This document shows positions 18,394 through 37,945 of a DNA stretch of 53,697 nucleotides, piece after piece (the stretch's first letter is position 1; the number at the start of each line of letters is the position of its first letter). Source of the DNA: Leisingera sp. JC1 (GTDB taxonomy: Bacteria > Pseudomonadota > Alphaproteobacteria > Rhodobacterales > Rhodobacteraceae); contig NZ_LYUZ01000082.1 in assembly GCF_001679925.1 (NCBI RefSeq), positions 57,310 to 111,006 of the forward strand. The letters run 5' to 3'. The notes under the pieces were generated by a model. The model searched no databases. It was not told the origin of the DNA and saw only the letters and a program-made list of their open reading frames with translations. Made by a program: the position numbers and the translations under genes.

Positions 18394-18407
18394 TTGACGG
18401 CTGTCAT
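18394..18407 (+). promoter_or_regulatory. FNR/CRP-type box, TTGACGGCTGTCAT
   Basis: One mismatch from TTGAC-N4-GTCAA. On the plus strand CACCAT follows after 21 bases (18429-18434), pointing to the zinc-finger gene at 18574. The response-regulator gene is on the other side. Confidence 0.5.
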
Positions 18408-18573
18408 TGCAGGTTTTGCGGCACGGCGCACCATGCAAATCCCCGCTGCCGTCCCTGCCGATTCCATGGCCCTAGGGCTAGGGGTTTCACATGGGGCAGC
18501 GGCTCAAAGAAGTTTTTGCACCTGGCCAGGGTCCAACCGGCCTTCGGTGCGCCAAAATGGGACAGTACGAGTC

Positions 18574-18894
18574 ATGAAAACGAACATCGCCAATGTTGAT
18601 GAACTTCAGCACCGCCTTGAAGGAACTGGACAGCTGCCGCTGTGCGGCCGCTGCGGTCAAAACCAGCTAGAGCGGCAGCACGTCAAGACCGCGGTCTGGC
18701 GAGAAGCGGAACTGATGGTCGTGGAGAACATTCCGGCCCTAGTTTGCCCGGCCTGCGGTGAGGAGTTTATCGGTTCGGAAACAGCGGCCGAATTGCAGCG
18801 GATGTGTCAGAACGGAGAAAGTACAGCCGGCTTGGTCTCGCGCCTGATCGTGCCAGTGATCGATTTTGCCATGCTGAATCCGGAACGCGTATGA
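18574..18894 (+). CDS. YgiT-type zinc-finger protein
   Basis: The 106-residue product has two CxxC knuckles (LCGRCG at about residue 25 and CPACGEEF near 58). It has the YgiT/MqsA-like layout, ending in TAAELQRM and SRLIVPVIDFA. In MqsA this N-terminal zinc domain belongs to an antitoxin, but here no MqsR-like toxin and no C-terminal HTH is present, so it is a stand-alone domain. A 20-codon membrane peptide gene overlaps its stop. A candidate FNR-type box lies 170 bp upstream. Confidence 0.65.
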   Translation: MKTNIANVDELQHRLEGTGQLPLCGRCGQNQLERQHVKTAVWREAELMVVENIPALVCPACGEEFIGSETAAELQRMCQNGESTAGLVSRLIVPVIDFAMLNPERV

Positions 18895-18953
18895 CATCGG
18901 CAAAACCGGTGGTCCTTGGACTGCTCATCTTGCTGGCCCTGGTGCTTTCCTAG
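18891..18953 (+). CDS. 20-residue membrane micropeptide
   Basis: The reading frame MTSAKPVVLGLLILLALVLS overlaps the zinc-finger gene stop as ATGA. Residues 6-20 form one hydrophobic helix, so the product would be a single-pass membrane peptide. The coupling suggests translation by re-initiation. There is no homology evidence, and chance cannot be excluded at this length. Confidence 0.3.
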   Translation: MTSAKPVVLGLLILLALVLS

Positions 18954-19034
18954 GGTCGGCTTTTTGAGCGGCGTGGTGAAATGGGGGATCTGCTGCCAAT
19001 CGGGGTAACCAGTCTTCTGGTGTCAGACGCGAAA

Positions 19035-19072
19035 CGGCCCTGCTGGCGGGTGGTAACCGCCCAGCAGGGCCG
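19035..19072 (-). terminator. Strong GC hairpin after the first EF-hand gene
   Basis: The arms CGGCCCTGCTGG and CCAGCAGGGCCG, with an inner CGG/CCG pairing, flank a short loop. On the minus strand the hairpin is followed by TTTC only, so it is a weak intrinsic terminator between convergent genes. Confidence 0.5.
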
Positions 19073-19100
19073 CCCTGTTGCGATGGCTTCAGCCGCAGAT

Positions 19101-19340
19101 TCAGTCCAGCGCAGCCAAAGTTCCCGCTTCAGTCGCGGCGTCCATTTCCTCCTGATCGAGGCTGCCGTCCTCATTGGCGTCCATTGCGGTGAACTGGTCT
19201 TCAGTGACATCGGGGTAGACCGCTGTCAGTTCCTCGTAGCTCGCCATGCCGTCTTCGTCGGCATCGACGTCCGACATCGCTGCCAGGGCAGCACTTGCCG
19301 CCATGGCCATAGCAGCAGCTGTAAGTGCGTAAACTTTCAT
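19101..19340 (-). CDS. Small secreted EF-hand protein 1
   Basis: The 79-residue product has a signal peptide (MKVYALTAAAMAMAASAALA, probable cleavage after residue 20). Two EF-hand loops follow, DVDADEDGMASYEE and DANEDGSLDQEE, with the canonical Asp/Glu ligand positions. A periplasmic calcium-binding role is inferred. GGAG lies before the ATG at 19340. It resembles the genes at 19464 and 41314, including the shared YPDVTEDQF linker. A perfect TTGAC box with a TATCCT -10 lies upstream. Confidence 0.8.
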   Translation of the reverse strand: MKVYALTAAAMAMAASAALAAMSDVDADEDGMASYEELTAVYPDVTEDQFTAMDANEDGSLDQEEMDAATEAGTLAALD

Positions 19341-19417
19341 GGTAATCTCCACTGCAAAACGGTGCGTACTTGTTACGGACCGGCAACAGCAGGATAGTCA
19401 CGGTCAAACGGGTTTCA

Positions 19418-19431
19418 TTGACGGGCGTCAA
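19418..19431 (-). promoter_or_regulatory. FNR/CRP-type box, perfect TTGAC/GTCAA, with -10
   Basis: The box is centred 84 bp before the EF-hand 1 start. On the minus strand TATCCT (19391-19396) follows after exactly 21 bases, a class II activator spacing. Confidence 0.75.
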
Positions 19432-19463: not shown

Positions 19464-19847
19464 TTACGCCTCACGGCTGTCTTCCGTCCATAAGCTGGGC
19501 CCGCTCTTAATAGTGCTCACTTGACCGGCGTGGCGGTCCAGAGCGCACCGCGCCGGAGCCAGGCAATGCTGCAGCACAGACGCAGCCAGCTTGCGTGTTT
19601 CCAGGCAGCCCTCTGAGGCGGCGGCGGCATATTCCGCCCCGTCCAGGAAACCGTCCCGGCTGCAGTCCATTGAGGCAAAAAGGGTTCTGCTGACATCTGG
19701 GTAGGCTTGGGTCAGCTCCTGGTAGCTGAGTTTTCTGTCGTTGTTGGAAACAACATTGCCTAGCGGTTCGACCGGCGTTGCCAGCAGGGCAAAGGCGGCT
19801 GCAACGGCAGCGGCCAAACCTGGGACTGCATATGTGAATACTCTCAT
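19464..19847 (-). CDS. Small secreted EF-hand protein 2, degenerate
   Basis: The 127-residue product starts at 19847 after GGAGGTGA. It has a signal peptide (MRVFTYAVPGLAAAVAAAFA). The first EF loop is poor (SNNDRKLSYQE); the second is better (DCSRDGFLDGAE). The core YPDVSRTLFASMD matches EF-hand 1. The C-terminal extension has Cys residues and no known domain. It is a diverged paralog in tandem with 19101, and its calcium affinity is doubtful. Confidence 0.72.
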   Translation of the reverse strand: MRVFTYAVPGLAAAVAAAFALLATPVEPLGNVVSNNDRKLSYQELTQAYPDVSRTLFASMDCSRDGFLDGAEYAAAASEGCLETRKLAASVLQHCLAPARCALDRHAGQVSTIKSGPSLWTEDSREA

Positions 19848-19925
19848 TCTCACCTCCAAAACCAAAAGGCGCGCTACAGATACGCGCCAGCGGTTTCAGG
19901 TTAGAAAGCGCCCCGCGACCGGCCA

Positions 19926-19939
19926 TTGATAGCCGTCAA
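19926..19939 (-). promoter_or_regulatory. FNR/CRP-type box, TTGATAGCCGTCAA
   Basis: The box is centred 85 bp before the EF-hand 2 start. TAACCT on the minus strand (19898-19903) follows after 22 bases. Confidence 0.7.
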
Positions 19940-20006
19940 TGGCGGCGCGGCTGAGCCGAGGCTATAAGCGGAAACGGGGATATTTCTAGGCGGGAAGCTG
20001 CCGCCG

Positions 20007-20020
20007 TTGACGCCCGTCAA
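20007..20020 (+). promoter_or_regulatory. FNR/CRP-type box, perfect TTGAC/GTCAA, with -10
   Basis: TATCTG (20043-20048) follows after 22 bases. The box is centred 50 bp before the GTG at 20064. It lies 67 bp from the oppositely directed box at 19926. Confidence 0.75.
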
Positions 20021-20449: not shown

Positions 20450-20902
20450 CTATCCGTACCGCGCGTCGAATGTACCGCAGTTGAGGCCAATCAGATCAAG
20501 GCCTGCCGCCAAGTGGTCGCATAGCATGGGAGTGCCACAGAGGTATCCGGCGGTACTGCCATTCTGATGATCTTCTGCCATGGCACGCAATTCCGGCCAG
20601 TCGTCAATGCTGGTGCCGTCACGCCCCAGCCACATCAGTGCAACCAGGTCCATCTGCGCATCCAGGCTGAGGTCGGATATGATAGAGATCAGTTCCTCCT
20701 CCACAGGATCGGAGGGGCGGTCCTCAAGAATGCCAAGCGCCATGTCGTCCTCGTCCATGCCGCTGGCAGAGGGGTCGGTGCAGTCCGATTTGCCGTCATA
20801 GTCTCTGGCGAGGGCGATGATGTAACACACTGTGTCCAGTGGCACCTCTAAGTCCAGAGGTGCGACTTCAGGTTGCACGGTACTGTGGTCTAAACTTGCC
20901 AT
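20450..20902 (-). CDS. DUF3775-family protein
   Basis: The 150-residue acidic protein resembles DUF3775: YIIALARDYDGKSD, then EEELISIISDLSLDAQMDLV, ALMWLGRDG and WPELRAMAEDH. The family is common in alphaproteobacteria and has no known function. The start at 20902 (MASLDHS) lies 26 bp after the universal stress protein stop. It is probably the third gene of an SPW-Usp-DUF3775 operon driven by the box at 21981. Confidence 0.75.
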   Translation of the reverse strand: MASLDHSTVQPEVAPLDLEVPLDTVCYIIALARDYDGKSDCTDPSASGMDEDDMALGILEDRPSDPVEEELISIISDLSLDAQMDLVALMWLGRDGTSIDDWPELRAMAEDHQNGSTAGYLCGTPMLCDHLAAGLDLIGLNCGTFDARYG

Positions 20903-20928
20903 GGCAGATCTTTCTGCGTTGTCTAGTT

Positions 20929-21450
20929 TTAGCGGGCTAGGATTACTGTGCATTGCGCACGGCGCAGCACCTTATCTGCGACGCTGTCGTGCAGAAATCG
21001 CCGCGCCGGCCCCAGCCCTTTCTGCCCGACCACGACTATGTCGCACCCTTCCAGTTCGGCGACGTTCAGGATTTCTTCGGCGTAATCACCGGGCAGGGTC
21101 AGGGTGCGAATGTTGCTGGCCCCTGCGGCGCGGGCGGATTTCTCGGCCCATCGCTGGATCAGCCGTCCGATTGCGGTCACGGCCTGCGCGCTGGTGCCGG
21201 CACGGCTGGTTTCACTAATTAGCTGGCTGATGTTTTCAGGCACATTGGTGAGCGCCAATTCTCCCGCTACGTGGTCCACGATGTGCTCGGCCTCTGCCAG
21301 ATTCATAAATTCTTCTGCGCGTCGGCTGTGCAGCAGGACATGCAGGATGATCAGCTCTGCCTCCAGACCCGCAGCCAGGCCTGCAGCAAATTGAACTGCC
21401 CGCTTCGCAGCTTTGGAGCCGTCTGTTGCCACAAGGATTTTCTGAGCCAT
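20929..21450 (-). CDS. Universal stress protein
   Basis: The 173-residue product has a single UspA domain: KILVATDGSKAAKRAV at the N-terminus, and DIVVVGQKGLGPARRFLHDSVADKVL at the C-terminus in the G-x2-G-x9-(G/S) region of ATP-binding Usps. The first glycine of the usual GSVS is replaced (HDSVAD), so nucleotide binding may differ. Usp proteins protect during growth arrest and low oxygen and are classic FNR/ANR-family targets. It lies 79 bp downstream of an SPW gene on the same strand. Confidence 0.9.
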   Translation of the reverse strand: MAQKILVATDGSKAAKRAVQFAAGLAAGLEAELIILHVLLHSRRAEEFMNLAEAEHIVDHVAGELALTNVPENISQLISETSRAGTSAQAVTAIGRLIQRWAEKSARAAGASNIRTLTLPGDYAEEILNVAELEGCDIVVVGQKGLGPARRFLHDSVADKVLRRAQCTVILAR

Positions 21451-21529
21451 AGCGGGCCCCTTCAATATCGGCAGGCACGCAGAAGCCAGCCCGCCGACAT
21501 TTTGTCCGGCAGGCTGGTGCTGGGATGTG

Positions 21530-21907
21530 TTAAGCGTGGCCGCCGCGGTAAACTTCGATGGCGGTCCAGCCACTGAGAGCGGCGACTATCAGACCGCTGA
21601 CCACGGTATTCGCCGTTGCGGGGAAGGAAGCTTGGAACCCGAGCACCCATGGTGAGATCACCAGCCAGGCGCCGAGCGCTGCGCCAATCCATTCTTCCCA
21701 TTCGCGGAAGGCGAACAGCTCAAAGGCTGCAAGGACCGCGACAACGGCGCCAATGATCATAAAATTCCAGGTTGCAGCTGGAATACCAGCTGTCGCTTCC
21801 GCACCACCGTCTGGCAAGCCGAGCAGCCGTGGGGACAGTATCAGCCAGATCCCGACAATCAGCGTGATCCAGTCTTGCCAGTGCTGTTTACTCAATTGCC
21901 GTTTCAT
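21530..21907 (-). CDS. SPW-repeat membrane protein 1
   Basis: The 125-residue product has four hydrophobic helices in two repeats. Each repeat has the SPW-family pattern: HWQDWITLIVGIWLILSPRL, then EEWIGAALGAWLVISPWVLG. The start at 21907 is a basic MKRQLSKQHWQDW. The family is of unknown function and is often near stress genes. It is the first gene of the Usp operon. Related proteins lie at 24573 and 34117. Confidence 0.85.
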   Translation of the reverse strand: MKRQLSKQHWQDWITLIVGIWLILSPRLLGLPDGGAEATAGIPAATWNFMIIGAVVAVLAAFELFAFREWEEWIGAALGAWLVISPWVLGFQASFPATANTVVSGLIVAALSGWTAIEVYRGGHA

Positions 21908-21980: not shown

Positions 21981-21994
21981 TTGACTGCCGTCAA
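21981..21994 (-). promoter_or_regulatory. FNR/CRP-type box, perfect, shared by SPW1 and kinase genes
   Basis: The box is about 80 bp from both the SPW start (21907) and the kinase start (22075). On the minus strand CAAAAT (21954-21959) follows after 21 bases, so SPW1-Usp is the better target. The plus side lacks a good -10. Confidence 0.7.
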
Positions 21995-22074: not shown

Positions 22075-23637
22075 ATGGCCAAGCAGAGACAGCCATCTAC
22101 CGGACAGAAGGCTGCATCCCGCAGCGGCGGAGTGGCGCAGTTCATTACAGCTGCACCGGCGGCACTAGCGTTTCTCGACGCGGATCTTCGTTATACCGCG
22201 TGGTCGAAAGCCTGGGCGCGATTGCACGGGTTTGGCGTCCGCGACCTTGCTGGGGTGCGGCATCAGCAACTGCGTCCAGACAGCCCCGCGGCCTGGTGTT
22301 CGGCCCTGCGCCGGGCGCTGGAGACGGGCAGTGGCAGCGCAGGAATGGATAGTTTTGCGGCGGGCGGTCGACGGACGGTAGTGCTGCGGTGGCGGATAGA
22401 GCCGGTAGCAGACCTGGACGGAGCCGTGGCGGGGCTCAGCCTGTATTGCGAGGCGGCGGAGGCGGACGGTGACTATGAGACGGAGCAATCCAAGCGGCAG
22501 CGCCTGGAAACCATCGGGCGGCTGGCTGGTGTCATCGCTCATGACTTCAACAACCTGCTGACGGTGATCCTCGCCAATCTGGAGCTGGCGGCGTTCCGTA
22601 TCCGGAATGAGGACTCGCGCGAATTGCTGCGGCGGGCGAGCGAAGCGGCGGAGATGGGAGCCAGCTTCAATAAGCGGCTTCTGGCACTGGCGGGCGGACG
22701 GAGGTCTGAACCTGCTGTTATTAAAGTGAACCGGCATATCACCGACACTTGGCAGGTTGTGGAAAGAGTTTTGAGTGAGGATACCCGGCTGCAGTTCCAT
22801 CCCGGCGCGGATGTCTGGCCGGTAAAAGCCGACCCAGGCGAGTTGGACGGTGCTATTTTAAACTTGGTAGTAAATGCGCGTGATGCGGTTGAGGGCAGAG
22901 GTGAGGTCACGATTGCCACGAAGAATGTTCAACTGACGGCTGCGGAGGCTGCCGGAATAGCCGGTGCGATGCCTGGTGATTTTGTGCGTATCTCCGTTGC
23001 TGACACCGGCAGCGGAATGCCGTCCGAAGTTGCAGAACTGGCGATGGAGCCGTTTTTCACCACCAAACCAACCGGTGCGGGCAGCGGGCTGGGGCTGACG
23101 AGCGTCGGGATGACAGTGGCCCGAGCGGGTGGTTTCCTGCTGCTGGACAGCCTACCAGGGGAAGGGACCACGGTCAGCCTGTACCTGCCGCGCACCCTTG
23201 AGGTGGCGCAGGATCCGGACGACGGGGAGGATGCGGATCTGCCCTTTGGAGAAGGTCAGTTGATCCTGGTCGTAGAAGACGACCCGCTGGTGCGGGAAGC
23301 GGTCCTGCAGCGGCTGGAGGTGTTAGGTTATGCCGTTCTGGAGGCCCCCGACGGCGAGGCAGCACTAGCGCTGCTGAAACAGGGGGAGCCGGTAGACTTG
23401 GTGTTTTCCGATGTTGTGATGCCGGGCAGGCTTTCGGGCTATGACCTGGCACTGCTACTGCGCCGCAGGTTTCCGGGGGTCGGGGTTCTGCTGACCTCGG
23501 GCTATGCTTCGCGCATGGTGCCACGGCGGCGGCGGTTTATGGTTCGCTCCGAGCTGATCGCTAAGCCTTATTCGTTGCAGGTGCTGGCGCGGGCGGTCCG
23601 CCGGGCCCTATTGGCAGCAGGAAAGGCCGAGGGGTAA
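22075..23637 (+). CDS. Hybrid histidine kinase, cytosolic
   Basis: The 520-residue product has a PAS-like region (about 20-115, FLDADLRYTAWSKAWARLHG). A HisKA/dimerization segment with H at about 155 (AHDFNNLLTVILANLELA) follows. The HATPase has N (NLVVNARDAV), G1 (VADTGSGMP) and G2 (GSGLGLTSVGM) boxes. A receiver domain comes last (LVVEDDPLV, SDVVMPG, KPYS). No membrane segment is seen, so it should sense an internal signal. The PAS has no obvious haem or flavin signature. It diverges from the SPW-Usp operon. Confidence 0.9.
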   Translation: MAKQRQPSTGQKAASRSGGVAQFITAAPAALAFLDADLRYTAWSKAWARLHGFGVRDLAGVRHQQLRPDSPAAWCSALRRALETGSGSAGMDSFAAGGRRTVVLRWRIEPVADLDGAVAGLSLYCEAAEADGDYETEQSKRQRLETIGRLAGVIAHDFNNLLTVILANLELAAFRIRNEDSRELLRRASEAAEMGASFNKRLLALAGGRRSEPAVIKVNRHITDTWQVVERVLSEDTRLQFHPGADVWPVKADPGELDGAILNLVVNARDAVEGRGEVTIATKNVQLTAAEAAGIAGAMPGDFVRISVADTGSGMPSEVAELAMEPFFTTKPTGAGSGLGLTSVGMTVARAGGFLLLDSLPGEGTTVSLYLPRTLEVAQDPDDGEDADLPFGEGQLILVVEDDPLVREAVLQRLEVLGYAVLEAPDGEAALALLKQGEPVDLVFSDVVMPGRLSGYDLALLLRRRFPGVGVLLTSGYASRMVPRRRRFMVRSELIAKPYSLQVLARAVRRALLAAGKAEG

Positions 23638-23786: not shown

Positions 23787-23800
23787 TTGACGGCCATCAA
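23787..23800. promoter_or_regulatory. Orphan FNR/CRP-type box
   Basis: TTGACGGCCATCAA lies where no gene starts within 100 bp on either side. On the minus strand a CAGACT-like -10 follows after about 22 bases, and the hairpin at 23641-23673 lies downstream. A short regulatory RNA is possible. The 23638-23825 interval holds no convincing gene. Confidence 0.55.
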
Positions 23801-23825: not shown

Positions 23826-24275
23826 TCAGGAGGAGAGTGCTTCGCGAATTGCATCAGCCAGTGAATGGTAGGGCAGGCGGACCAGGTTCTTTGCAATTTC
23901 CAGTGTCACTTTTGCCTGCAGACTGACTGGCACTTCATCGTGCCATACACCCAGAATGCTGGGCGAAGCAAACAATACAAGCTTGTCGAAGTTTTGATCA
24001 CGTAGCGCCGAGTTCAGGAAATCGGACACATCGCGCAAGAATTCGCACTGGTCGGCCCGCTGCGGCGAGTGGTGCGATTGCGTGGCCGGACGGCGCCCGC
24101 TGCCGTTGTGGGCAAAGGCGTGCCCGGGTTTGCCTGCGATGATGCCGCGGACGTGCCGTTCTGGAGCCTGCAGCACAATCTCCAGCCCTGCGGGGCTATG
24201 GGGTTTAGGCAACCCCTGCAGGATCCGCGCACGGTGCGAATTGATGATGACATACCAGTTGCGGTCCGAGTTCAT
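23826..24275 (-). CDS. Host attachment-family (Host_attach) protein
   Basis: The 149-residue product fits the family named for attachment to host cells. It has an opening NWYVIINSHRARIL, a middle FLRDVSDFLNSALRDQNFDKLVLFASPSILGV, and a C-terminal VTLEIAKNLVRLPYHSL. The fold resembles eRF1-like domains (baeRF), and the name does not prove the function. GGAG precedes the ATG at 24275; the longer frame from 24521 overlaps a regulatory box and is rejected. A box with CAAGAT lies about 230 bp upstream. Confidence 0.72.
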   Translation of the reverse strand: MNSDRNWYVIINSHRARILQGLPKPHSPAGLEIVLQAPERHVRGIIAGKPGHAFAHNGSGRRPATQSHHSPQRADQCEFLRDVSDFLNSALRDQNFDKLVLFASPSILGVWHDEVPVSLQAKVTLEIAKNLVRLPYHSLADAIREALSS

Positions 24276-24507: not shown

Positions 24508-24521
24508 TTGACTGCTGACAA
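24508..24521 (-). promoter_or_regulatory. FNR/CRP-type box, imperfect, TTGACTGCTGACAA
   Basis: On the minus strand it reads TTGTC-N4-GTCAA. CAAGAT (24481-24486) follows after 21 bases, pointing to the Host_attach gene with a leader of about 200 nt. Confidence 0.5.
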
Positions 24522-24572: not shown

Positions 24573-24929
24573 TCAGGGCATGTCGTCCCAAGTAGGTTGC
24601 AGCAGTGATAAGCCTCCCATCAGCGCCAGCACAGAGCCGCAGACCAGTGATTGGGCCAGTGCGGCGGGAACCAGATAGAACCCGAGCATCCAAGGCGCCC
24701 AGATTACCCAAAGCCCAAGCAGCGTGATGGCCAGTTCCAGCCATCTGAGAAAGACAAACATTTCCAGCATGGCCAGTGCCGCTGCCGCTAGACCGGATGC
24801 CAGGGAGTTCATGGCGATATGCGTAAGGTCAAGGCCGACAGGCCAGTCGATGCGGAAGGCAAGCGGTGCCAGTAAAAGCCAAAGGCCAGCAGTGAAACTC
24901 ACGCAGTCTTGCCAATGGGCGCGGTTCAT
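24573..24929 (-). CDS. SPW-repeat membrane protein 2
   Basis: The 118-residue product has four hydrophobic helices in two SPW-like repeats: HWQDCVSFTAGLWLLLAPLA and LELAITLLGLWVIWAPWMLG, where AP replaces SP. It begins 28 bp after the BON gene stop, so BON-SPW2 form one operon. A membrane role of unknown nature in stress is inferred from context. Confidence 0.82.
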   Translation of the reverse strand: MNRAHWQDCVSFTAGLWLLLAPLAFRIDWPVGLDLTHIAMNSLASGLAAAALAMLEMFVFLRWLELAITLLGLWVIWAPWMLGFYLVPAALAQSLVCGSVLALMGGLSLLQPTWDDMP

Positions 24930-24957
24930 TGTGCGAACCTTCTCTGAGTTGGGTAGA

Positions 24958-25608
24958 TCACGGTTCCACGCTGAGACCGTCGACTACGCTGCTGACGCCA
25001 GGCACCGCCCAGGCAGCTCGTCGGGCGGCATCCCGTTCGGCCTCGGTGCGCACTCGCCCGGTCAATGTGACCGCGCGGTCGTCGATATTGATCTGAATGC
25101 CCTTGGCCTCCCTGGCGGCGTCGCGCCGCAGGGCGGTTTCAATGCTCATCCGAACGTTTGTGTGGCTGACTGCGGAGGTGATCCCGATTTGGTTGATGAT
25201 TTGCTTTACACCTGAAACCTTCTGAACCGCCCGTTCGGCCGCGGCTTTCTCAAAGCTCCAGCCGGCCTGTCCGGTGAGGGTCAGAACGCCGTGCTCGACC
25301 TCGACCTTGACCGTGTCCTTGGGGACCGAGTCGCCCCAGCGCAGTGCCTCAACCGCACGCCTGGCGATTTCATCGTCAGCGTCCAGATGCTCACCGATGG
25401 GCCGCACTTCAATTTCCATCACGACAGCGCGCACGCCGCTGACGCGTTTGACGGTCTTGCCGATTGCCTGTTTCTGCGCGCCGGTTGGAACATGGCCGGT
25501 GAGGGTCGCGATCCCATCCTCCACGGAGACGCCGATTGAGGCCGCGTCGATGCTGGGGACGAGGTCCAGTTCCTCGATGATTTCCCGTCTGAGTGTGGTG
25601 TCTTTCAT
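24958..25608 (-). CDS. Triple BON-domain protein
   Basis: The 216-residue product has three BON domains (about 5-70, 80-145, 150-215). Each carries the pattern of a VxxGxxxLxG strand and a VxGVxxVxxxI end (DGIATLTGHV, HGVLTLTGQA, DRAVTLTGRV). BON domains often bind membranes or lipids. No signal peptide is seen, so it may be cytoplasmic, like the OsmY-related BON proteins found near Usp genes. The start at 25608 is preferred to the much longer open frame because of the MKDTTLRREI opening and the regulatory box upstream. Confidence 0.82.
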   Translation of the reverse strand: MKDTTLRREIIEELDLVPSIDAASIGVSVEDGIATLTGHVPTGAQKQAIGKTVKRVSGVRAVVMEIEVRPIGEHLDADDEIARRAVEALRWGDSVPKDTVKVEVEHGVLTLTGQAGWSFEKAAAERAVQKVSGVKQIINQIGITSAVSHTNVRMSIETALRRDAAREAKGIQINIDDRAVTLTGRVRTEAERDAARRAAWAVPGVSSVVDGLSVEP

Positions 25609-25682: not shown

Positions 25683-25696
25683 TTGATGGCGGGCAA
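25683..25696 (-). promoter_or_regulatory. FNR/CRP-type box, imperfect, with -10
   Basis: The minus-strand reading is TTGCC-N4-ATCAA. CATACT (25656-25661) follows after 21 bases. It is centred about 80 bp before the BON start and 80 bp before the divergent LysR start. Confidence 0.6.
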
Positions 25697-26784: not shown

Positions 26785-28416
26785 ATGAGTGCGAAAGACA
26801 TCATTTTTTCCGAGAACGCCCGGCACCGTATGCTGGGCGGTGTAAATGTTCTTGCCGATGCGGTGAACGCGACGCTGGGTCCTCGCGGCCGTAACGTGCT
26901 GATCGAAAAAAGCTTTGGAGCGCCGCGCTCGACCAAAGACGGCGTGTCCGTTGCCAAGTCCATTGAGTTGCCGGACCTGGTGGAAAACACTGGTATCCGG
27001 CTGATCCGCGAAGTGGCGGAGCGCACTGCCAAGCTGGCAGGCGACGGCACGTCCACTGCCACTGTCCTGGCCCGCTCCATCCTGCGCGAAGGCTGCAAGG
27101 CGGTTGCAGCAGGGATGAACCCGATGGACGTGAAGCGCGGAATTGACCGCGGCGCCGAAGCCTTGGTGGAAGCGTTGACGGGTCTGTCGCGCCCGGTGAA
27201 CACCAGCGCGCAAATCACACAGGTTGCAACCATTGCTTCCAATGGCGACACCGAGGCCGGGCAAATTCTGACCGAAGCGATGGAGCGGGTAGGGAGAACC
27301 GGGGTGATCACCATCGAGGAGGCCAAGTCGCGCGAAACCCGGTTGGAAACGGTGGAGGGAATGCAATTTGATCGCGGTTACCTTTCCCCTTATTTCATCA
27401 CCGAGGCGGACAGCCTCAGCGTGGAGTTGGAAGCGCCGTTCATCCTTCTGTTTGACAAGAAAATCTCAAATCTAGCGCCGTTTATTCCGGTGCTGGAGGC
27501 GGTGATCAAACACGGAAAGCCGGTACTGGTGATTGCCGAGGATGTGGATGGGGAGGCACTGGCGGCTCTGGTTGTCAACAAGCTGCGCGGCAGCCTGCAA
27601 TGCGCTGCGGTGAAGGCGCCCGGTTTTGGCGACCGCCGCAAGGAGATGCTGCAGGACATTGCAGTGCTGACCGGAGCCACAGTCATTTCCGCCGATTTGG
27701 GTATGAAGCTAGAGAATGTCACGCTGGACATGCTGGGGCAGGCGGCGCGGGTTATGGTCAGCAAGGATGACACCACACTAGTCGGCGGCGGCGGTGCCAA
27801 ACCGGAAATAGAGGCGCGCTGCAAAGCGATCCGGCAGCAGATCGAAGAAACAAAGTCTGACTATGACCGAGAAAAGCTGGAGGAGCGGCTGGCGAAGCTG
27901 AGCGGCGGTGTCGCGATTGTCCAGGTCGGCGGTGCCAGCGAAGCGGAGGTTAAGGAGCGCAAGGACCGGATCGAGGATGCGCTGCATGCCACCCGCGCGG
28001 CGACCGAGGAAGGGATTGTGCCGGGCGGCGGCGCAGCGCTGCTCTATGCGGCGCGGGCGCTGGATGGGCTGGAAGCCGCAAACGGCGATATGCGGGCTGG
28101 CATTGCCATCATCCGCAAAGCGGCGGCAGAGCCGGTGCGCCGGATTATCCGTAATGCGGGCAAGGACGAAGCGCTGATCGCAGGCAAGCTGCTGGAGAAG
28201 AACGACACCGCCTGGGGCTACGATGCGCAGAATGACTGTTTGGCCGACATGTTCGAGGCGGGGATCGTGGATCCTGCCAAGGTGGTGCGGATCGCCTTGC
28301 AAAACGCAGTGTCGGTTGCCGGTCTCATGATGACCACCGAAGCGGTGGTGGTGGACCATCCCAAGGCGGCAGCGCACTCCGCTTATCCGGGTGGCTTGGA
28401 CGGTATGGATTTCTAA
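26785..28416 (+). CDS. groEL: GroEL chaperonin paralog without adjacent GroES
   Basis: The 543-residue product is a full-length Hsp60. ATP-site motifs are present ([23 protein letters not shown], where S replaces a usual T, and [15 protein letters not shown]), with the hinge [11 protein letters not shown]. The C-terminus ends [10 protein letters not shown], without a long GGM tail. GroEL folds proteins with a GroES lid; no groES is nearby, so a chromosomal GroES must serve. It is probably a secondary stress chaperonin. The regulator is unknown; no CIRCE or TTGAC box is seen upstream. Confidence 0.95.
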
Positions 28417-29925: not shown

Positions 29926-30324
29926 TCATGCCGCGGATTCACTCCCTTGGCCCTGCGCCGCCCGTTGTGGCTCGCCTCCTAGGCGGAGCATTCCGCAAAG
30001 CCGCCCCTTTCCGTCCAGCACCGGCATTTGCCGGAACCGCCCGATCCCCATCAGAAATACCGCATCATCCAAAGGTTCATCGGCACTGCAATAGACTGGG
30101 TTGCGGGTCATAACTTCACCGGCGGTCACCGTGGCGGGGTCGCCGCCGGCTGCCAGCACCCGGATCACTATATCCCGGTCAGTGAGAATGCCTAGCAGGC
30201 AGTCCCTGCTGCCGATGACAACCGCACCCGTGTTCTGCTGCTGCATGATACGCGCGATACTGCGGATGGGAGTATTCGTCCCAGCGGTCGCAGTTGCACG
30301 TGACATGGCCTGCCTGACTATCAT
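29926..30324 (-). CDS. Tandem CBS-domain protein
   Basis: The 132-residue product has two CBS domains: MIVRQAMSRA, GAVVIGSRDCLLGILTDRDIVIRVL, and then EVMTRNPVYCSADEPLDDAV, MPVLDGKGRLCGMLRLG. Such stand-alone CBS pairs bind adenine nucleotides and report energy state. The start at 30324 is preferred to the longer open frame. A perfect box with a TATCCT -10 lies upstream. It faces mgtE end to end. Confidence 0.85.
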   Translation of the reverse strand: MIVRQAMSRATATAGTNTPIRSIARIMQQQNTGAVVIGSRDCLLGILTDRDIVIRVLAAGGDPATVTAGEVMTRNPVYCSADEPLDDAVFLMGIGRFRQMPVLDGKGRLCGMLRLGGEPQRAAQGQGSESAA

Positions 30325-30378: not shown

Positions 30379-30392
30379 TTGACCGCCGTCAA
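30379..30392 (-). promoter_or_regulatory. FNR/CRP-type box, perfect, with TATCCT -10
   Basis: TATCCT on the minus strand (30352-30357) follows after exactly 21 bases. The box is centred 61 bp before the CBS start. Same hexamer as at 19391. Confidence 0.78.
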
Positions 30393-30410: not shown

Positions 30411-30710
30411 TCAGAGGTTTTCGTACCGGCCGAGCTGCCGCAGGAGATGTTCCCGCTGCTCCAGAAGGTCCAGCACCAGTGCCACGCCGGCGGCATTGAT
30501 ACCCAGATCGCAGCTGAGCCGCCGCGCCTTCTTGGCGCGGGTTATGGATAGGCCGTGGAAGCGCCAGTTCGCCGCTCCGGTGCCTTCGGGTTCCAGGACG
30601 CCTTGCTGCACCAGTTCCACGACCCAGCTCTCTTCGGCGCGGCAAAAACGGCATAATTGCTGCAGGGTAAGACTGTCGAGAATCTGGCTTTCCGGTGCGG
30701 TGGTTTTCAT
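30411..30710 (-). CDS. cbpM: Chaperone modulator CbpM
   Basis: The 99-residue product has the CbpM layout: LTLQQLCRFCRAEESWVVEL near the start, then GVLEPEG, and a C-terminal INAAGVALVLDLLEQREHL helix. CbpM binds the J domain of CbpA and dampens its DnaK stimulation. It begins 4 bp after the cbpA stop, so the two are one operon. Confidence 0.85.
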   Translation of the reverse strand: MKTTAPESQILDSLTLQQLCRFCRAEESWVVELVQQGVLEPEGTGAANWRFHGLSITRAKKARRLSCDLGINAAGVALVLDLLEQREHLLRQLGRYENL

Positions 30711-30714
30711 GCGC

Positions 30715-31647
30715 TTATCCCCCTATGCTGGCGCGCGGGTTGAACGGGATTTCCCGGGCCATTTGCTCAAACAGTCTGCGAGCGGCATCGGTCGTGACCT
30801 TCGGGTTTACTATCTTGAGAGTGGCGTAGATGTCGCCGGAGGGCGATCCTGGCAGCCCCTTGCCCCTAAGGCGAAGGATCTGGCCATTGCGGGCGTTGGG
30901 CGGCACTTTCACCGCGAGGCTGCCAACTGGCGCGGGCATACGGATTTTGCCGCCGAGAACCGCCTCCCAAGGCGCTAGCGGCAGATCGAGGTACAGATCC
31001 TTGCCGTCGGCCCGGTAAACCGGGTGGGGTGCAAAGAACACTTCCAGCAGAAGGTCGCCGGGCGGACCACCGCCGGGAGACTGCGGACCTTGGCCGGGCA
31101 GACGGATGTGCTGGCCTTCCACAATCCCCTTGGGGATATAGACCGGGATATCGCGGGACTTCAGCTGTACGGTCCCATCTTCGACTGCTACAGGGGTCTG
31201 CAGCGTCAGCACCCGGCTGCCGCCAGTGTAGGCGTCCGGGATATCGATCCGGATGCGGGCATGCTGGCTGGTGCTGCGTTCGTGCCTTGCCTTGGCAAAG
31301 GGCGAGGGCCGACGGAACAGGGTTTCGAAGAAGTCGCTGAAAACTTCGCCCCGATCAGTGCCGCCGCTGGTAAAGCGGAACCCCTGCTGCCAGCCTGGCG
31401 GCGGTGTGAAGGCCCCGCCGGAGGATTGTTGCTGCTGGTTCCAGAGCCGGTCATAGGCGGCGCGCCGCTCTGGATCCTTCAGCACCTCGTAAGCTTCGGT
31501 AATCTCCCGGAACCGCGTCTCGGCCTCGGGAGAGGCGTTGATGTCGGGATGAAACTGGCGCGCCAGTCTGCGGTAGGCTCGCTTGATCTCTTCGCTGCCG
31601 GCGTCCTTCTCCAACTCCAACGCCTGGTAATAATCCTTGAACTCCAT
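30715..31647 (-). CDS. cbpA: DnaJ-like co-chaperone CbpA
   Basis: The 310-residue product has an N-terminal J domain (YYQALELEKDAG to about residue 70) with the HPD motif in RQFHPDINAS. A glycine/proline-poor linker and two C-terminal substrate-binding domains follow (IRIDIPDAYTGGSRVLTLQ, DLYLDLPLAPWEAVLGG). There is no zinc-finger region, which is typical of CbpA rather than DnaJ. It partners DnaK and is followed by CbpM. The start at 31647 is MEFKDYY. A box lies 67 bp upstream. Confidence 0.92.
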   Translation of the reverse strand: MEFKDYYQALELEKDAGSEEIKRAYRRLARQFHPDINASPEAETRFREITEAYEVLKDPERRAAYDRLWNQQQQSSGGAFTPPPGWQQGFRFTSGGTDRGEVFSDFFETLFRRPSPFAKARHERSTSQHARIRIDIPDAYTGGSRVLTLQTPVAVEDGTVQLKSRDIPVYIPKGIVEGQHIRLPGQGPQSPGGGPPGDLLLEVFFAPHPVYRADGKDLYLDLPLAPWEAVLGGKIRMPAPVGSLAVKVPPNARNGQILRLRGKGLPGSPSGDIYATLKIVNPKVTTDAARRLFEQMAREIPFNPRASIGG

Positions 31648-31707: not shown

Positions 31708-31721
31708 TTGACGGCCATCAA
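31708..31721. promoter_or_regulatory. FNR/CRP-type box between cbpA and hsp20
   Basis: TTGACGGCCATCAA is centred 67 bp before cbpA. The minus strand lacks a clear -10. On the plus strand CGACAT (31743-31748) follows after 21 bases, pointing to hsp20 with a leader of about 130 nt. Confidence 0.6.
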
Positions 31722-31883: not shown

Positions 31884-32390
31884 ATGTCCAAGACATCGAA
31901 ACTTCCAGCCGGCAGGTCAGACGCCTCCTTACCAGCAAGTTGGATGGGCTTCAGCAGCCTGCGGGACGAGATTGACCGGATGTTTGCGGCCCTTGAGCCG
32001 ATGAATATGCTACAACGCGGCTTTTCTGACGGGGAACCTGTGGGCCGCGTGATGCAGCCGTTCCCTGCCATTGACGTGACTGAAGCAGAAGATGGCTACC
32101 AGGTTTCGGCAGAGCTGCCTGGTGTTGCATTGGAAGATATCGACATCAAACTGGCCAATGGAACCCTGACTATTCAGGGCGAAAAGACTGAGCAAAAGGA
32201 TGAGGCCGGCAAAGGGTATCACCTGAGCGAACGGCGCTGGGGGAAATTCCAGCGGCTACTGAGGGTGCCGGACAATGTGGATGAAGGCCGTATTGAGGCG
32301 CGCTATGCCAATGGGATACTGCTGGTGACGCTTCCCAAATCGGAAACAGCGCTTGCCGCAGAACGGACAATTGAAGTCAGTGCCGGCTGA
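31884..32390 (+). CDS. Small heat-shock protein Hsp20, first copy
   Basis: The 168-residue product has an alpha-crystallin domain from about residue 55 to 155 (FPAIDVTEAEDGYQVSAELP, then ANGTLTIQGEKTEQKDE and ANGILLVTLPKSE). The tail has an I-x-V (TIEVSAG), as in canonical oligomerising holdases. AGAGGAG precedes the ATG at 31884. The leader contains two hairpins. Divergent from cbpA. Confidence 0.9.
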   Translation: MSKTSKLPAGRSDASLPASWMGFSSLRDEIDRMFAALEPMNMLQRGFSDGEPVGRVMQPFPAIDVTEAEDGYQVSAELPGVALEDIDIKLANGTLTIQGEKTEQKDEAGKGYHLSERRWGKFQRLLRVPDNVDEGRIEARYANGILLVTLPKSETALAAERTIEVSAG

Positions 32391-32652: not shown

Positions 32653-33489
32653 ATGCATTACGGGAAATTCACAGCCACTGCTTCTGCAGGGCGCTGCCGG
32701 GCGTGCCCGGTCAGCCACCTGGGTATTTGCGCAGCAGCGGGGGAGCAGGTCTCTGCTTCATTTTCAAGCCGGGCCCGTCTGGCCGGGTTCCGGGCGGGGG
32801 AAACGATTGTGCCGCAGGGCGAAAAGGCCGGGTACGGCGGCATCATCGTGGAAGGCGCGGTGAAAGTCGTAAGCATTACGGAAGCCGGCGCGGCGCATGT
32901 GCTGCAGCTGCTGCATCCAGGTGAATGGGTTGGTCCGGTGTTTCCGGAGCGGCCGGGCGTCGCCTGGGATGCCGCGAACGATGTCAAAATTTGCTGGATA
33001 GCGCTGCCTGCGCTGGAGGCGCTGATGCAGAAGGAACCCAAGCTGAGCCAGGCGCTGCTTACCGCTGCCACCCGCCAGTTGAATGCACAGTGGGACTGGG
33101 CAGTTCTGCTGCGCAGCGGCGGCACATTATGCAGGGTGGCCAGCTGGCTGCTGCGCCAAGCTAAGGAGGCAGGTGCTGAACAGGGCGGCTGCGGCCAAAG
33201 TGAGGTTGTAGTTATCGACCTGCGGCGCCGGGATTTGGCCTCATTGCTGGATATGACGGTGGAGACCCTGTGCCGGGCGCTGAGCCAACTGGAGCAGCGC
33301 CAAGCCATCGTTATGCTGACCCCGAAACAGGCTGCGATCAGCAATATGGGTGTGTTGCAGCAGATTGCGCGGAGCGAGCATGGTGCAGGGGAGGGGAAGG
33401 CAGAATTAGGTGGATCGCTTCCGCATAATTCCGAACTTGTGAAGCACTCGCCGTCTGCCGCCAGCGAAGCTTCCAGTAGCGGCGCTTGA
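32653..33489 (+). CDS. FNR-type transcription regulator with four cysteines
   Basis: The 278-residue product has a Cys motif near the N-terminus (C15, C18, C26 in GRCRACPVSHLGIC) and a central C114 (VKICWIAL), the pattern of an oxygen-sensing 4Fe-4S FNR. A cyclic-nucleotide-like sensor domain and a dimer helix follow, then a helix-turn-helix (RRRDLASLLDMTVETLCRAL). In E. coli FNR the recognition residues are E209, S212 and R213; here they are E204, C207 and R208. A 30-residue polar tail is extra. The start at 32653 follows GGAGAG. It is the likely regulator of the TTGAC boxes. Confidence 0.85.
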   Translation: MHYGKFTATASAGRCRACPVSHLGICAAAGEQVSASFSSRARLAGFRAGETIVPQGEKAGYGGIIVEGAVKVVSITEAGAAHVLQLLHPGEWVGPVFPERPGVAWDAANDVKICWIALPALEALMQKEPKLSQALLTAATRQLNAQWDWAVLLRSGGTLCRVASWLLRQAKEAGAEQGGCGQSEVVVIDLRRRDLASLLDMTVETLCRALSQLEQRQAIVMLTPKQAAISNMGVLQQIARSEHGAGEGKAELGGSLPHNSELVKHSPSAASEASSSGA

Positions 33490-33541: not shown

Positions 33542-33555
33542 ATGACCGCTGTCAA
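33542..33555 (+). promoter_or_regulatory. FNR/CRP-type box, one mismatch
   Basis: ATGAC-N4-GTCAA, centred 79 bp before the 33628 start. The -10 is unclear; CATACT lies farther downstream at 33594. Confidence 0.5.
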
Positions 33556-34032: not shown

Positions 34033-34046
34033 TTGACTGCTGTCAA
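34033..34046 (+). promoter_or_regulatory. FNR/CRP-type box, perfect, before SPW3-hsp20-lon
   Basis: CAGACT (34068-34073) follows after 21 bases. The box is centred 77 bp before the SPW start at 34117. Confidence 0.72.
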
Positions 34047-34116: not shown

Positions 34117-34473
34117 ATGATACGCAAGCATTGGCAGAATTGGATCATCACCGCCTTGGGTTGCTGGCTCGCCGTCACGCCGTGGCTTCATAATTCAGGG
34201 CTAGCCGACGGCGGTTTGGCCATCCCGGTCAGCTGGAGCTTCATCGCAGCCGGATCGGCAGCCGCAGTCCTGGCGGCCGCAGCCCAGTACACAGGAAACA
34301 GCTGGGAGGAATGGGGCTGCGTGGCAATTGGTCTTTGGCTGGTCCTCTCGCCTTGGACACTTGGATTTACTGACAATGAGCCGGTTGCATGGACGGCGGT
34401 TCTAAGCGGTGGGGCTATCATGGTGCTGGCCGGTTGGTGCATCGCGCAGGACCCCTGGCGGAGGAAAACCTGA
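34117..34473 (+). CDS. SPW-repeat membrane protein 3
   Basis: The 118-residue product has two repeats with TP or SP motifs: HWQNWIITALGCWLAVTPWL and EEWGCVAIGLWLVLSPWTLG. It starts at 34117, after a perfect box. It is the first of SPW3-hsp20-lon, which read together with short gaps. Membrane protein of unknown function. Confidence 0.84.
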   Translation: MIRKHWQNWIITALGCWLAVTPWLHNSGLADGGLAIPVSWSFIAAGSAAAVLAAAAQYTGNSWEEWGCVAIGLWLVLSPWTLGFTDNEPVAWTAVLSGGAIMVLAGWCIAQDPWRRKT

Positions 34474-34554
34474 CCCAGCGCTTGGCAGGCGGGTGCTCTG
34501 AGGCCTGCGGCAGAAACTCCGGGTAAGGGAAACTAGGATAAACTTTGGTGAAGC

Positions 34555-34970
34555 ATGGACCGTCAGCCTCCTGAGAACATGTTGCTTTCCGAAGCGATGG
34601 CGCAGCTTGCGGCGACAGAGAAGTTCTGCCGCCAGCTGTTTCTGCTCACATCCTTGCAGGACGGGCAGCCCTGCTGGGAACCGCCGGTGGATCTCTTGGA
34701 AACCGACGACGAGCTGCTTGTCTATGTGGTGTTGCCAGGCGCCAAGGCCGATGACGTTGAGGTGCGCATCAGAAACAACGAACTGATCATCCGGGGGCGG
34801 CGGGAGCCGCCGCCGGAGCTGTGCCATGCCACAGTGATCCGGCTAGAGCTGCCCTTTGGCCGGTTCGAACGGCGCATTCCGATCCCGCCGGGCACCTATG
34901 CCGTCAAGCGGCAGACGGTGCGGGGGCATTTGCTGATCCGGCTGTGCAAGAGCGGAGAGGGAGAGACGGC

Positions 34971-34974
<4 letters not shown>
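34555..34974 (+). CDS. Hsp20-like protein, second copy, truncated tail
   Basis: The 139-residue product has an alpha-crystallin domain (WEPPVDLLETDDELLVYVVL, then IRNNELIIRGRREPPPE and GHLLIRLCKS). It ends soon after the last strand, so the C-terminal I-x-I tail used for oligomerisation is missing. Cys residues are unusual for the family. Its stop overlaps the Lon start as ATGA, so the two products are made together. It may pass clients to Lon; that is inference. Confidence 0.82.
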
Positions 34975-37364
<2,390 letters not shown>

Positions 37365-37390
37365 GCGGCAAATTAGTTCCGAACAAAGGT

Positions 37391-37426
37391 CCGGGCGCCG
37401 ACAGATTAGGCGCCCGGATTTTTTTA
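37391..37426 (+). terminator. Intrinsic terminator after lon
   Basis: CCGGGCGCC (37391-37399) and GGCGCCCGG (37409-37417) form a perfect 9-bp stem with a 9-base loop, followed by A and seven T. Confidence 0.92.
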
Positions 37427-37451
37427 AGCCCTAGAACTTCATCAGTCGTTG

Positions 37452-37730
37452 TCATTCAGCGGTTGCGAACCCGTCTTCTTCGATCAAAACATGATCATCG
37501 GGATGGAACGTTTGCCCGGTTCCGTCTGCAAGCTTTAGCAGGCAGCCTTCGCCGCAAGCTTCAGTTGCGGATTCACCCGGGTCCAGTGCGATCTCAAAAC
37601 TATCGCTGCCGGAACTGAAGGTGACAGTTACTGAGTCGCTCCTGGTGTTGGTGATCGTAAGCGCGTTTGCGCCGCTGGCCAAAACCAGGGACATTGCGGC
37701 CAACATCCCTGCACTGGTTACTGTACTCAT
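37452..37730 (-). CDS. Small secreted protein, 92 aa
   Basis: The start at 37730 gives MSTVTSAGMLAAMSLVLASG and an Ala-Leu cleavage-like site near residue 24 (signal peptide). The mature part is rich in Asp, Ser and Thr, with beta-prone stretches (SVTVTFSSGSDSFEIALDPG) and two Cys in ACGEGCLLK. I do not recognise the family. It is 23 bp downstream of the 35-codon basic gene and probably shares its transcript. Confidence 0.6.
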   Translation of the reverse strand: MSTVTSAGMLAAMSLVLASGANALTITNTRSDSVTVTFSSGSDSFEIALDPGESATEACGEGCLLKLADGTGQTFHPDDHVLIEEDGFATAE

Positions 37731-37753
37731 TTTTTGACACCCAGGACTGCAGG

Positions 37754-37861
37754 TTATTTCTTTCCGGAGTCCGATGCGGACTGGGCAGGCTTTCCGGAGG
37801 CAGACGCCGGCTTTGCCGGCGCCGGCTTGGGCTTCTTCGGTGTGGATCTTGGATCGGTCAT
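37754..37861 (-). CDS. 35-residue Lys/Pro/Ala-rich peptide
   Basis: The sequence starts MTDPRSTPKKPKPAPAKPAS and is basic and likely disordered, like a histone-tail or low-complexity peptide. It is not a known family. The ATG at 37861 is 77 bp from an FNR-type box, the usual distance for the island. This supports a real small gene, although short ORFs are weak evidence. Confidence 0.4.
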   Translation of the reverse strand: MTDPRSTPKKPKPAPAKPASASGKPAQSASDSGKK

Positions 37862-37931
37862 GATGTTCACCTTGTCTCTGCGGGACCAATTTCCCGCAAC
37901 GTGACGGTGGCGGATCGCAGCCGAAGATTCA

Positions 37932-37945
37932 TTGACGGCGGGCAA
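37932..37945 (-). promoter_or_regulatory. FNR/CRP-type box, imperfect
   Basis: TTGACGGCGGGCAA is centred 77 bp before the start at 37861 and would drive the 35-aa and 92-aa genes. No clear -10 is seen. Confidence 0.45.

What the first reader, a model, noticed from the sequence alone, without database searches (positions are those of the whole stretch)
18394..37945. A TTGAC-N4-GTCAA palindrome marks at least thirteen promoters in one stress island
The sequence shows boxes at 18394, 19418, 19926, 20007, 21981, 23787, 24508, 25683, 30379, 31708, 33542, 34033 and 37932. Most are 60-85 bp before a start codon. At 19418, 19926, 20007, 21981, 24508, 25683, 30379 and 34033 a -10-like hexamer (TATCCT, TAACCT, TATCTG, CAAAAT, CAAGAT, CATACT, TATCCT, CAGACT) begins after 21 or 22 bases. 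That places the box near -41.5, the class II FNR/CRP geometry. Usp, SPW, CBS, BON, EF-hand and SPW-hsp20-lon genes would share one switch. Inference: a local low-oxygen or energy-stress regulon.
Basis: partly seen in the sequence, partly recalled or inferred. Interest (0 to 1): 0.82.

Follow-up and report, generated by a model that had tools for sequence, protein, structure and literature searches.

The report
One switch site shared by stress genes
In a marine bacterium, thirteen near-identical short DNA sites lie between the genes of one stress-survival cluster, most of them just in front of a gene, and they are probably docking sites for an oxygen-sensing-type switch protein encoded in the same cluster, so that the cluster would turn on together as a self-contained unit.

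Summary
The boxes are real. Twelve TTGAC-N4-GTCAA sites with at most one mismatch, five of them exact, lie in the window (chance 0.97 and 0.02); the thirteenth (25683) has two mismatches. Genome-wide the motif is not enriched (101 against 119 reversed-pattern controls at one mismatch); the excess is this island. All 13 boxes are intergenic, 10 lie 54-78 bp before a start codon, and a -10-like hexamer peaks at a 21-base gap, the class II geometry claimed. New here: 11 of 13 boxes have a central GC, against 0 of 18 other TTGAY-N4-RTCAA sites in this genome and 1 of 28 published Rhodobacter FnrL ChIP sites. Boxes and spacing recur beside homologous regulators only about 37-39% identical (G395, same genus; G144, another genus). 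Nine of nine promoter-proximal island SPW genes have an exact TTGAY-N4-RTCAA box; 0 of 16 non-island SPW genes in the genus do. The likely reader is the island's own FNR-type protein (32653-33489: four conserved cysteines, helix MTVETLCR), which is not FnrL. Closest known system: the FixK2-controlled microoxic stress cluster of Bradyrhizobium. Oxygen as signal is inferred. Verdict: a dedicated, locally confined FNR-type regulon; a new variant of a known kind.

The parts
18394..18407 (-). box, faces the response-regulator gene (118 bp to ATG 18275; 82 to ATG 18311)
19418..19431 (-). box of the first EF-hand gene, 77 bp; TATCCT at gap 21
19926..19939 (-). box of the second EF-hand-like gene, 78 bp; TAACCT at gap 22
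20007..20020 (+). box of the small gene 20082-20414, 61 bp; TATCTG at gap 22 (weak)
21981..21994 (-). box of the SPW-Usp-DUF3775 run, 73 bp; CAAAAT at gap 21. The sensor kinase starts 80 bp the other way without a -10
23787..23800 (-). box between convergent genes; its TG flank faces the 3' end of the kinase gene, CAGACT at gap 22; same layout in G394 and G412
24508..24521 (-). box upstream of the Host_attach/baeRF gene, 232 bp; CAAGAT at gap 21
25683..25696 (-). box (two mismatches) of the BON-SPW run, 74 bp; CATACT at gap 21
30379..30392 (-). box of the CBS gene, 54 bp; TATCCT at gap 21; CBS spacing is 56 bp in two distant modules
31708..31721 (.). box between divergent CbpA (60 bp) and Hsp20 (162 bp); the TG flank faces Hsp20
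33542..33555 (+). box of the small gene 33628-34014, 72 bp; no clear -10
34033..34046 (+). box of the SPW-Hsp20-Lon run, 70 bp; CAGACT at gap 21 (weak)
37932..37945 (-). box 70 bp before a small basic ORF (start 37861, read by eye); no clear -10
32653..33489 (+). CRP/FNR-type regulator with FNR-like cysteines C15 C18 C26 C114 and recognition helix MTVETLCR; proposed reader of the boxes; no box directly in front of it
17553..18311 (-). OmpR-type response regulator (receiver + Trans_reg_C)
22075..23637 (+). PAS histidine kinase with C-terminal receiver
18574..18894 (+). YgiT-type zinc finger protein
19101..19340 (-). EF-hand protein
19464..19847 (-). second EF-hand-like protein (below Pfam cut-off)
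20450..21907 (-). SPW - universal stress protein - DUF3775 run
23826..24275 (-). Host_attach / baeRF-type protein (start codon is my choice)
24573..25608 (-). BON (three domains) - SPW run
26785..28416 (+). GroEL; no box directly in front
29926..30324 (-). two-CBS-domain protein
30411..31647 (-). DnaJ-type (CbpA-like) protein and its MerR_2 (CbpM-like) partner
31884..32390 (+). Hsp20
34117..37364 (+). SPW - Hsp20 - Lon

Best explanation
The boxes are operators of a local regulon. The island's own FNR-type protein (32653-33489) binds TTGAC-NGCN-GTCAA as a dimer, centred 40.5-41.5 bp before the transcript start, and activates transcription in class II fashion. Shown by sequence: the boxes, their placement and orientation, their -10 spacing, their conservation, and the FNR cysteines and helix. 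Inferred: that this protein rather than FnrL reads them; that a [4Fe-4S] cluster forms and responds to oxygen; that the linked PAS kinase and OmpR-type regulator feed a second signal in; that the products (Usp, SPW, CBS, BON, Hsp20, DnaJ, Lon) protect cells during oxygen or energy limitation. The central GC probably keeps this regulon apart from that of FnrL, whose sites mostly have other centres.
For: Enrichment confined to the island and its partial copy. 13 of 13 intergenic; -10 score peaks at gap 21. Central GC 11 of 13 (counted) against 0 of 18 other own-genome sites and 1 of 28 FnrL ChIP sites of R. sphaeroides; tests. In the 12 boxes written towards the gene chosen for each, the gene-side half is RTCAA in 12 and is followed by TG in 11. 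Boxes in G412 keep 144 of 154 bases against 1645 of 1922 in flanks, p 0.005. The regulator is in 5 of 21 genus genomes; all 5 have TTGACNGCYGTCAA sites on its island, and 2 of the other 16 have any such site. In the modules of G395 and G144, with regulators about 37-39% identical, boxes stand 56 and 56 bp before CBS, 72 and 75 before SPW, 171 and 175 before Hsp20; at these six promoters the -10 score at gap 21/22 ranks first of 90 offsets and 0 of 5000 shuffles reach it. Four cysteines and ETLCR invariant in 7 of 7 aligned; best matches among solved proteins are entries named FNR. SPW genes: box in 9 of 9 promoter-proximal island copies, 0 of 16 outside.
Against: No binding, expression or transcript-start data. 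Box and regulator lie on the same island, so their co-occurrence is partly co-inheritance, and the distant modules were found through the regulator. The regulator gene has no box directly in front; the nearest is at 31708, before Hsp20. Boxes 23787 and 24508 do not fit simple promoter spacing, and 33542 and 37932 lack a clear -10. FnrL sites include TTGAC half-sites, so FnrL binding to some boxes is not excluded; 1 of the 10 further predicted FnrL sites in the same table (RSP3341, TTGATtgcgATCAA) is GC-centred. GC-centred boxes also occur beside FNR-like proteins with another helix (G253) and near others in G199, so the Ser-to-Cys change alone cannot explain the centre. The most distant module (G239, about 30% identical) has only one good box. 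The facing gene of three boxes in divergent regions was a choice.
Confidence: 0.72

Rival explanations
1. The chromosomal global regulator FnrL reads the boxes; the island protein does something else. The island would be an extension of the ordinary FnrL regulon.
For: FnrL is present (L009, 458.6 bits on the FnrL model, cut-off 300). FnrL controls Usp genes in D. shibae and uspA in R. sphaeroides. FnrL sites include TTGAC half-sites, and one ChIP site and one predicted site have a GC centre.
Against: Centre GC in 11 of 13 island boxes against 0 of 18 other own-genome sites and 1 of 28 FnrL ChIP sites. That one ChIP site has no listed target gene and matches the repABC parS core. All four genus orthologues and the distant modules carry such boxes beside this regulator type, though they were found through the regulator.
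Confidence: 0.17
2. The boxes are bound by another protein of the island, the OmpR-type response regulator, and the FNR-type protein is a side branch.
For: Response regulator and PAS kinase travel with the module in G395, G262, G144 and G239.
Against: The half-site TTGA and the 14-bp palindrome are the CRP/FNR pattern; OmpR-type proteins usually bind direct repeats (recalled). The class II spacing fits FNR-type activators.
Confidence: 0.05
3. The boxes are partition sites (parS) of a RepB/ParB protein: the inner 14 bases resemble the repABC parS consensus GTTNNCNGCNGNNAAC.
For: In 9 of 13 loci read from other genera, GTTGACAGCTGTCAAC-type sites lie near repA, repB or repC-like genes (named by eye); published parS is that sequence.
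Against: parS needs AAC at the end; written towards the gene all 13 boxes read AAT. Boxes sit at fixed promoter distance. In G412 the island is on a 4.36-Mb contig, so presumably the chromosome.
Confidence: 0.02
4. Chance or inherited copies of one promoter in a GC-rich stretch.
For: One rearranged partial copy of island promoters exists on contig C97.
Against: 0 of 100 shuffles reach the counts; the genes behind the boxes are of many unrelated families; the flanks differ between promoters.
Confidence: 0.02

Closest known systems
FixK2-controlled microoxic stress cluster of Bradyrhizobium diazoefficiens (bll4634-blr4655; passages of PMC9104804 and PMC6515984 seen)
   Same: FixK2-dependent genes with TTGA-type boxes: GroEL5 (-150), HspC2/Hsp20 (-86), Usp (-72), host attachment protein (-69), an operon with DnaJ (-48); Usp, host attachment, CBS, DnaJ and Hsp20 proteins rise in microoxia
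   Different: FixK2 answers to FixLJ; here the regulator has the FNR cysteines and sits inside the cluster with a PAS kinase and an OmpR-type regulator, and the boxes are GC-centred (0 of the 19 FixK2 boxes visible in the passages are; my count)
FnrL regulon of Rhodobacter sphaeroides and Dinoroseobacter shibae (PMC2908626 section 11 and passages; PMC5398030 passages and section 25)
   Same: FNR-type activator with an iron-sulphur cluster, TTGAY-N4-RTCAA sites, Usp among targets
   Different: FnrL is global and 20 of its 28 listed ChIP sites are YR-centred (my count); the island protein scores 95.6 against the FnrL cut-off of 300 and its refined sites lie only on the island and its partial copy
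FnrN and sHSP RLV_1399 of Rhizobium leguminosarum (PMC11784457 passages)
   Same: Hsp20-type gene induced at 1% oxygen in an FnrN-dependent way, with a box centred at -87.5 from the start codon
   Different: one gene behind a regulator that also controls other loci (hup, fix)
HcpR sites with TTGACnnnnGTCAA (PMC1274295 passages)
   Same: same half-sites, predicted for a CRP/FNR-family protein
   Different: hcp, frdX and norB genes of delta-proteobacteria and cyanobacteria; unrelated gene set
DosR dormancy regulon of mycobacteria (recalled, no call)
   Same: similar cargo: Usp, CBS, Hsp20, baeRF-type proteins
   Different: different regulator family and box

Membership tests
FNR group of the CRP/FNR superfamily | all four cluster cysteines present (criterion of PMC2908626) | tested here: met
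   C15, C18, C26, C114 invariant in 7 of 7 aligned homologues; the profile matches solved proteins named FNR, E 4e-23
FNR group of the CRP/FNR superfamily | Glu209, Ser212, Arg213 equivalents in the recognition helix | tested here: inconclusive
   Glu and Arg kept, Ser replaced by Cys (ETLCR) in 7 of 7; the positions are named in PMC2908626
FNR group of the CRP/FNR superfamily | oxygen-labile [4Fe-4S] cluster | not testable with these tools
   needs purified protein
FnrL (NF045989) | score over the curated cut-off of 300 bits | tested here: not met
   95.6 bits; the genome's own FnrL L009 has 458.6
FnrL sites | TTGAY-N4-RTCAA with the centres seen in FnrL ChIP sites | tested here: not met
   GC centre in 11 of 13 boxes against 1 of 28 ChIP sites
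FixK | lacks at least one FNR cysteine (PMC2908626); FixK model NF050806 | tested here: not met
   all four cysteines present; 56.1 bits against cut-off 300
FixLJ-FixK cascade | FixJ-like (NarL-type) response regulator (type recalled) | tested here: not met
   the window's regulator has Trans_reg_C, OmpR type
Class II CRP/FNR-dependent promoter | site centred near -41.5 | tested here: inconclusive
   -10-like hexamers peak at gap 21 in the window and at 21/22 in six distant promoters; no mapped transcript starts
repABC parS | GTTNNCNGCNGNNAAC | tested here: not met
   all 13 boxes read AAT, not AAC, on the gene side

The most novel reading that the evidence does not exclude
This is an insulated, transferable low-oxygen survival island: an FNR sub-family whose DNA choice is set by the central GC of the N4 spacer, so its regulon does not cross-talk with FnrL, and which carries its own regulator, its own two-component input and a dozen matching promoters into new genomes.
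Probability: 0.35. Interest if true: 0.68.

Novelty: new variant of a known kind. Interest (0 to 1): 0.52.

Why it matters
FNR, FixK and DNR proteins are described as having virtually identical predicted sites (PMC2908626 passages), which leaves open how a cell with several of them avoids cross-talk. Here two FNR-type proteins in one genome appear to be separated by the two central bases of the spacer. That can be tested with a few oligonucleotides. It would also give a signal and a context to poorly characterised genes (SPW, Host_attach/baeRF, BON, DUF3775) that travel together in marine bacteria.

Tried and rejected
Whole-genome enrichment of the motif: rejected; at one mismatch the genome has 101 sites and the reversed-pattern control 119. 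Family-wide box counts as a regulon census: rejected; 103 of 394 genomes have a TTGACNGCYGTCAA match, but in 9 of 13 loci that I picked from the capped listing and read, repA, repB or repC-like genes (by eye) lie near. A matrix scan of the distant modules was first run at a threshold of 11 that is too low, and its 31 control loci included 13 chosen because they held the pattern; its control rate (4.69 per 10 kb) is no lower than that of the modules (1.00-4.68), so that count is not used. At scores of 22 or more I count by eye: G395 5, G262 2, G144 3, G239 0, controls 3 (two in L083, one in L107, both near FNR-like genes). Boxes as parS: rejected on the flanking base. Paper searches: no paper held 'SPW repeat', none reached 4 of 5 or 4 of 6 of the terms with SPW, none held all six terms on FNR spacer specificity, and TTGACNNNNGTCAA was found in one paper only. 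These cover open-licence PMC papers only. No structure was predicted.

The six weaker profile hits in the family (L105-L110) were read and set aside because their helices are ETVSR or ESISR, not ETLCR. Profile A1 was built from the four strong hits among others, so their E-values are partly by construction. The regulator of G407 was left out of A1 (it is nearly that of G394).

The start codons of Host_attach (24275) and the response regulator (18275), the gene that each box in a divergent region faces, and which SPW genes count as island genes are my choices.
Full report
The observation. The window is a 53.7-kb part of contig C82 of a 5.19-Mb genome; the only two named relatives of its regulator that were found are Leisingera. 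TTGAC-N4-GTCAA occurs 5 times exactly (expected 0.02) and 12 times with up to one mismatch (expected 0.97) in the window, all between 18394 and 37945. The thirteenth listed box, 25683, has two mismatches. Genome-wide there are 8 exact sites against 4 for the reversed pattern, and 101 against 119 at one mismatch. So the motif is ordinary in the genome and exceptional in this island. Of the 3 exact sites outside the window, one is in a partial, rearranged copy of island pieces at the end of contig C97 (98% identical to 19904-20040 and 24430-25151), and the two others lack a central GC. With the refined pattern TTGAYNGCYRTCAA all 7 distinct exact places are in the island (6) or in that copy (1).

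Placement. All 13 boxes are fully intergenic in a stretch that is 17% intergenic by my gene list (p 1e-10). Ten lie 54-78 bp before a start codon. Over 15 box-gene pairs the mean -10 score is highest at gap 21 of 90 offsets (z 3.1), and over 12 start-facing promoters 0 of 5000 shuffles reach the gap-21/22 score. That would centre the box at -40.5 to -41.5. Written towards the gene chosen for each, the 12 boxes all end in RTCAA and 11 continue with TG; their mismatches to TTGAY-N4-RTCAA are all in the distal half. For 11 promoters compared with G412 the boxes keep 144 of 154 bases against 1645 of 1922 in the flanks (p 0.005).

A new feature: the centre. Of 28 distinct TTGAY-N4-RTCAA sites in the genome (control 6), 8 are in the island, 2 in the copy, and 18 elsewhere. 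The two central bases are GC in 6 of 8 island sites, in 1 of the 2 in the copy, and in 0 of the 18 elsewhere (6 of 8 against 0 of 18: p 1.2e-4). Over all 13 island boxes the count is 11. One of the other 18 lies just before the genome's own fnrL (TTGACCCAGATCAA). In the R. sphaeroides table (PMC2908626, section 11 read in full) 1 of 28 listed ChIP sites has GC (p 2.8e-7 against 11 of 13), and that one, on a plasmid with no target gene, matches the repABC parS core. One of the 10 further sites predicted there (RSP3341) also has GC. Island boxes and FnrL sites are therefore different populations of sites, with a small overlap.

The likely reader. The gene 32653-33489 encodes a CRP/FNR protein with cysteines C15, C18, C26 and C114 and the helix MTVETLCR. 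The four cysteines and ETLCR are invariant in 7 of 7 aligned proteins (window, G412, G394, G395, G262, G144, G239). It is not FnrL (95.6 bits, cut-off 300; the genome's FnrL, L009, has 458.6). The regulator is found in 5 of 21 genus genomes (own, three at 79-81% identity, one at 38%), in 4 of 394 family genomes at E 1e-30, own included, only in the own genome among 385 of the class at profile E 1e-40, and in no plasmid record at 1e-25, records near this genome possibly left out. TTGACNGCYGTCAA occurs in all 5 regulator-bearing genus genomes and in 2 of the other 16 (G396, two far-apart places; G403, one), where no island protein homologue lies within 1.5 kb. In G407 two places are on a second contig that carries island genes, and one of the three places in G395 is away from the island.

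Comparative test. In G412, G394 and G407 the island, or the part on hand, is syntenic and boxed (L030 and L031 are the same contigs as G407:C72 and G394:C40). In G395 (same genus), G262 and G144 (other genera), with regulators 37-40% identical, a smaller module keeps the response regulator, PAS kinase, FNR-type gene and Hsp20; G395 and G144 also keep SPW, CBS and Host_attach. In these two the boxes recur at like distances: CBS 54 bp here, 56 and 56 there; SPW 70 and 73 here, 72 and 75; Hsp20 162 here, 171 and 175. The G144 CBS box has two mismatches. At these six promoters, which were not used to find the rule, the -10 score at gap 21/22 ranks first of 90 offsets and 0 of 5000 shuffles reach it, although two of the six hexamers are weak (CAGGCT, GACACT). 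G239 (about 30%) has only one good box. Among 30 of the 31 SPW genes found in the genus (one had no locus), an exact TTGAY-N4-RTCAA box lies within 260 bp in 9 of 9 promoter-proximal island genes, in 0 of 5 copies of the SPW gene that follows BON (the box is in front of BON in the window, G412 and G394; the C97 copy is cut), and in 0 of 16 SPW genes outside the island.

Mechanism and its limits. Best reading: an FNR-type dimer bound at about -41 activates the island promoters. The cysteine pattern predicts a [4Fe-4S] cluster and hence a response to oxygen or nitric oxide; this is inference. The regulator has no box directly in front (the nearest, 31708, precedes Hsp20), so its level may be set by the linked two-component system, an arrangement like FixLJ-FixK in logic but with different parts (an OmpR-type regulator). 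The cargo matches known low-oxygen responders: in Bradyrhizobium, GroEL5, HspC2, Usp, host attachment protein and DnaJ depend on FixK2, with boxes listed at -150, -86, -72, -69 and -48 (PMC9104804, passages), and Usp, host attachment, CBS, DnaJ and Hsp20 proteins rise in microoxia (PMC6515984, passages).

Against this reading: no binding or expression data; co-location is partly co-inheritance, and the distant modules were found through the regulator; 23787 faces the 3' end of the kinase gene (with a -10-like CAGACT conserved in G394 and G412); 24508 is 232 bp from Host_attach; 33542 and 37932 lack a -10; GroEL and MgtE have no box directly in front; and GC-centred boxes also lie near FNR-like proteins of another type in G253 and G199, so the Cys in the helix is not the whole explanation of the centre.

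Verdict. It is a new variant of a known kind: an FNR/FixK-type stress regulon that is carried and controlled locally, with a site distinguishable from that of the cell's global FNR protein.

Noticed in passing
window 23787-23800: A box with GTCAATG and CAGACT at gap 22 faces the 3' end of the kinase gene here and in G394 and G412; it may make an antisense or small RNA, or be left over from a Host_attach-Hsp20 neighbourhood as in G395.
   Followed up: partly
contig C97:39387-41877 (L006): A rearranged, 98% identical partial copy of island pieces (19904-20040 next to 24430-25151) lies at a contig end.
   Followed up: partly
L072-L078, L080, L082: GTTGACAGCTGTCAAC-type palindromes lie near repA, repB or repC-like genes (by eye), i.e. 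repABC parS. The FnrL ChIP peak on plasmid P002 in PMC2908626 has the same core and may be parS (my inference).
   Followed up: partly
G166 (L084): 92 forward matches of TTGACNGCYGTCAA in one 3-Mb genome; the two read are long AAAATTGAC..GTCAATTTT inverted repeats between open frames, perhaps terminators.
   Followed up: partly
L116 (G253), L117 (G199): FNR-like genes near GC-centred boxes without the island cargo (only a weak YgiT-type match in G199): TTGACAGCTGTCAATG between a divergent FNR-like pair in G253; two sites in front of another gene in G199.
   Followed up: partly
window 12070-15494: Transposase-like gene (rve, Mu-transpos_C_2) and an AAA ATPase gene to the left of the island, consistent with a mobile or rearranged border.
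   Followed up: no
L037 (G407): The regulator's C-terminal tail is shortened by a TAG; the DNA-binding part is intact.
   Followed up: no
G262 (L066): A gene resembling a ribosome hibernation factor (by eye) starts 343 bp after an exact box at 18431 of L066.
   Followed up: no
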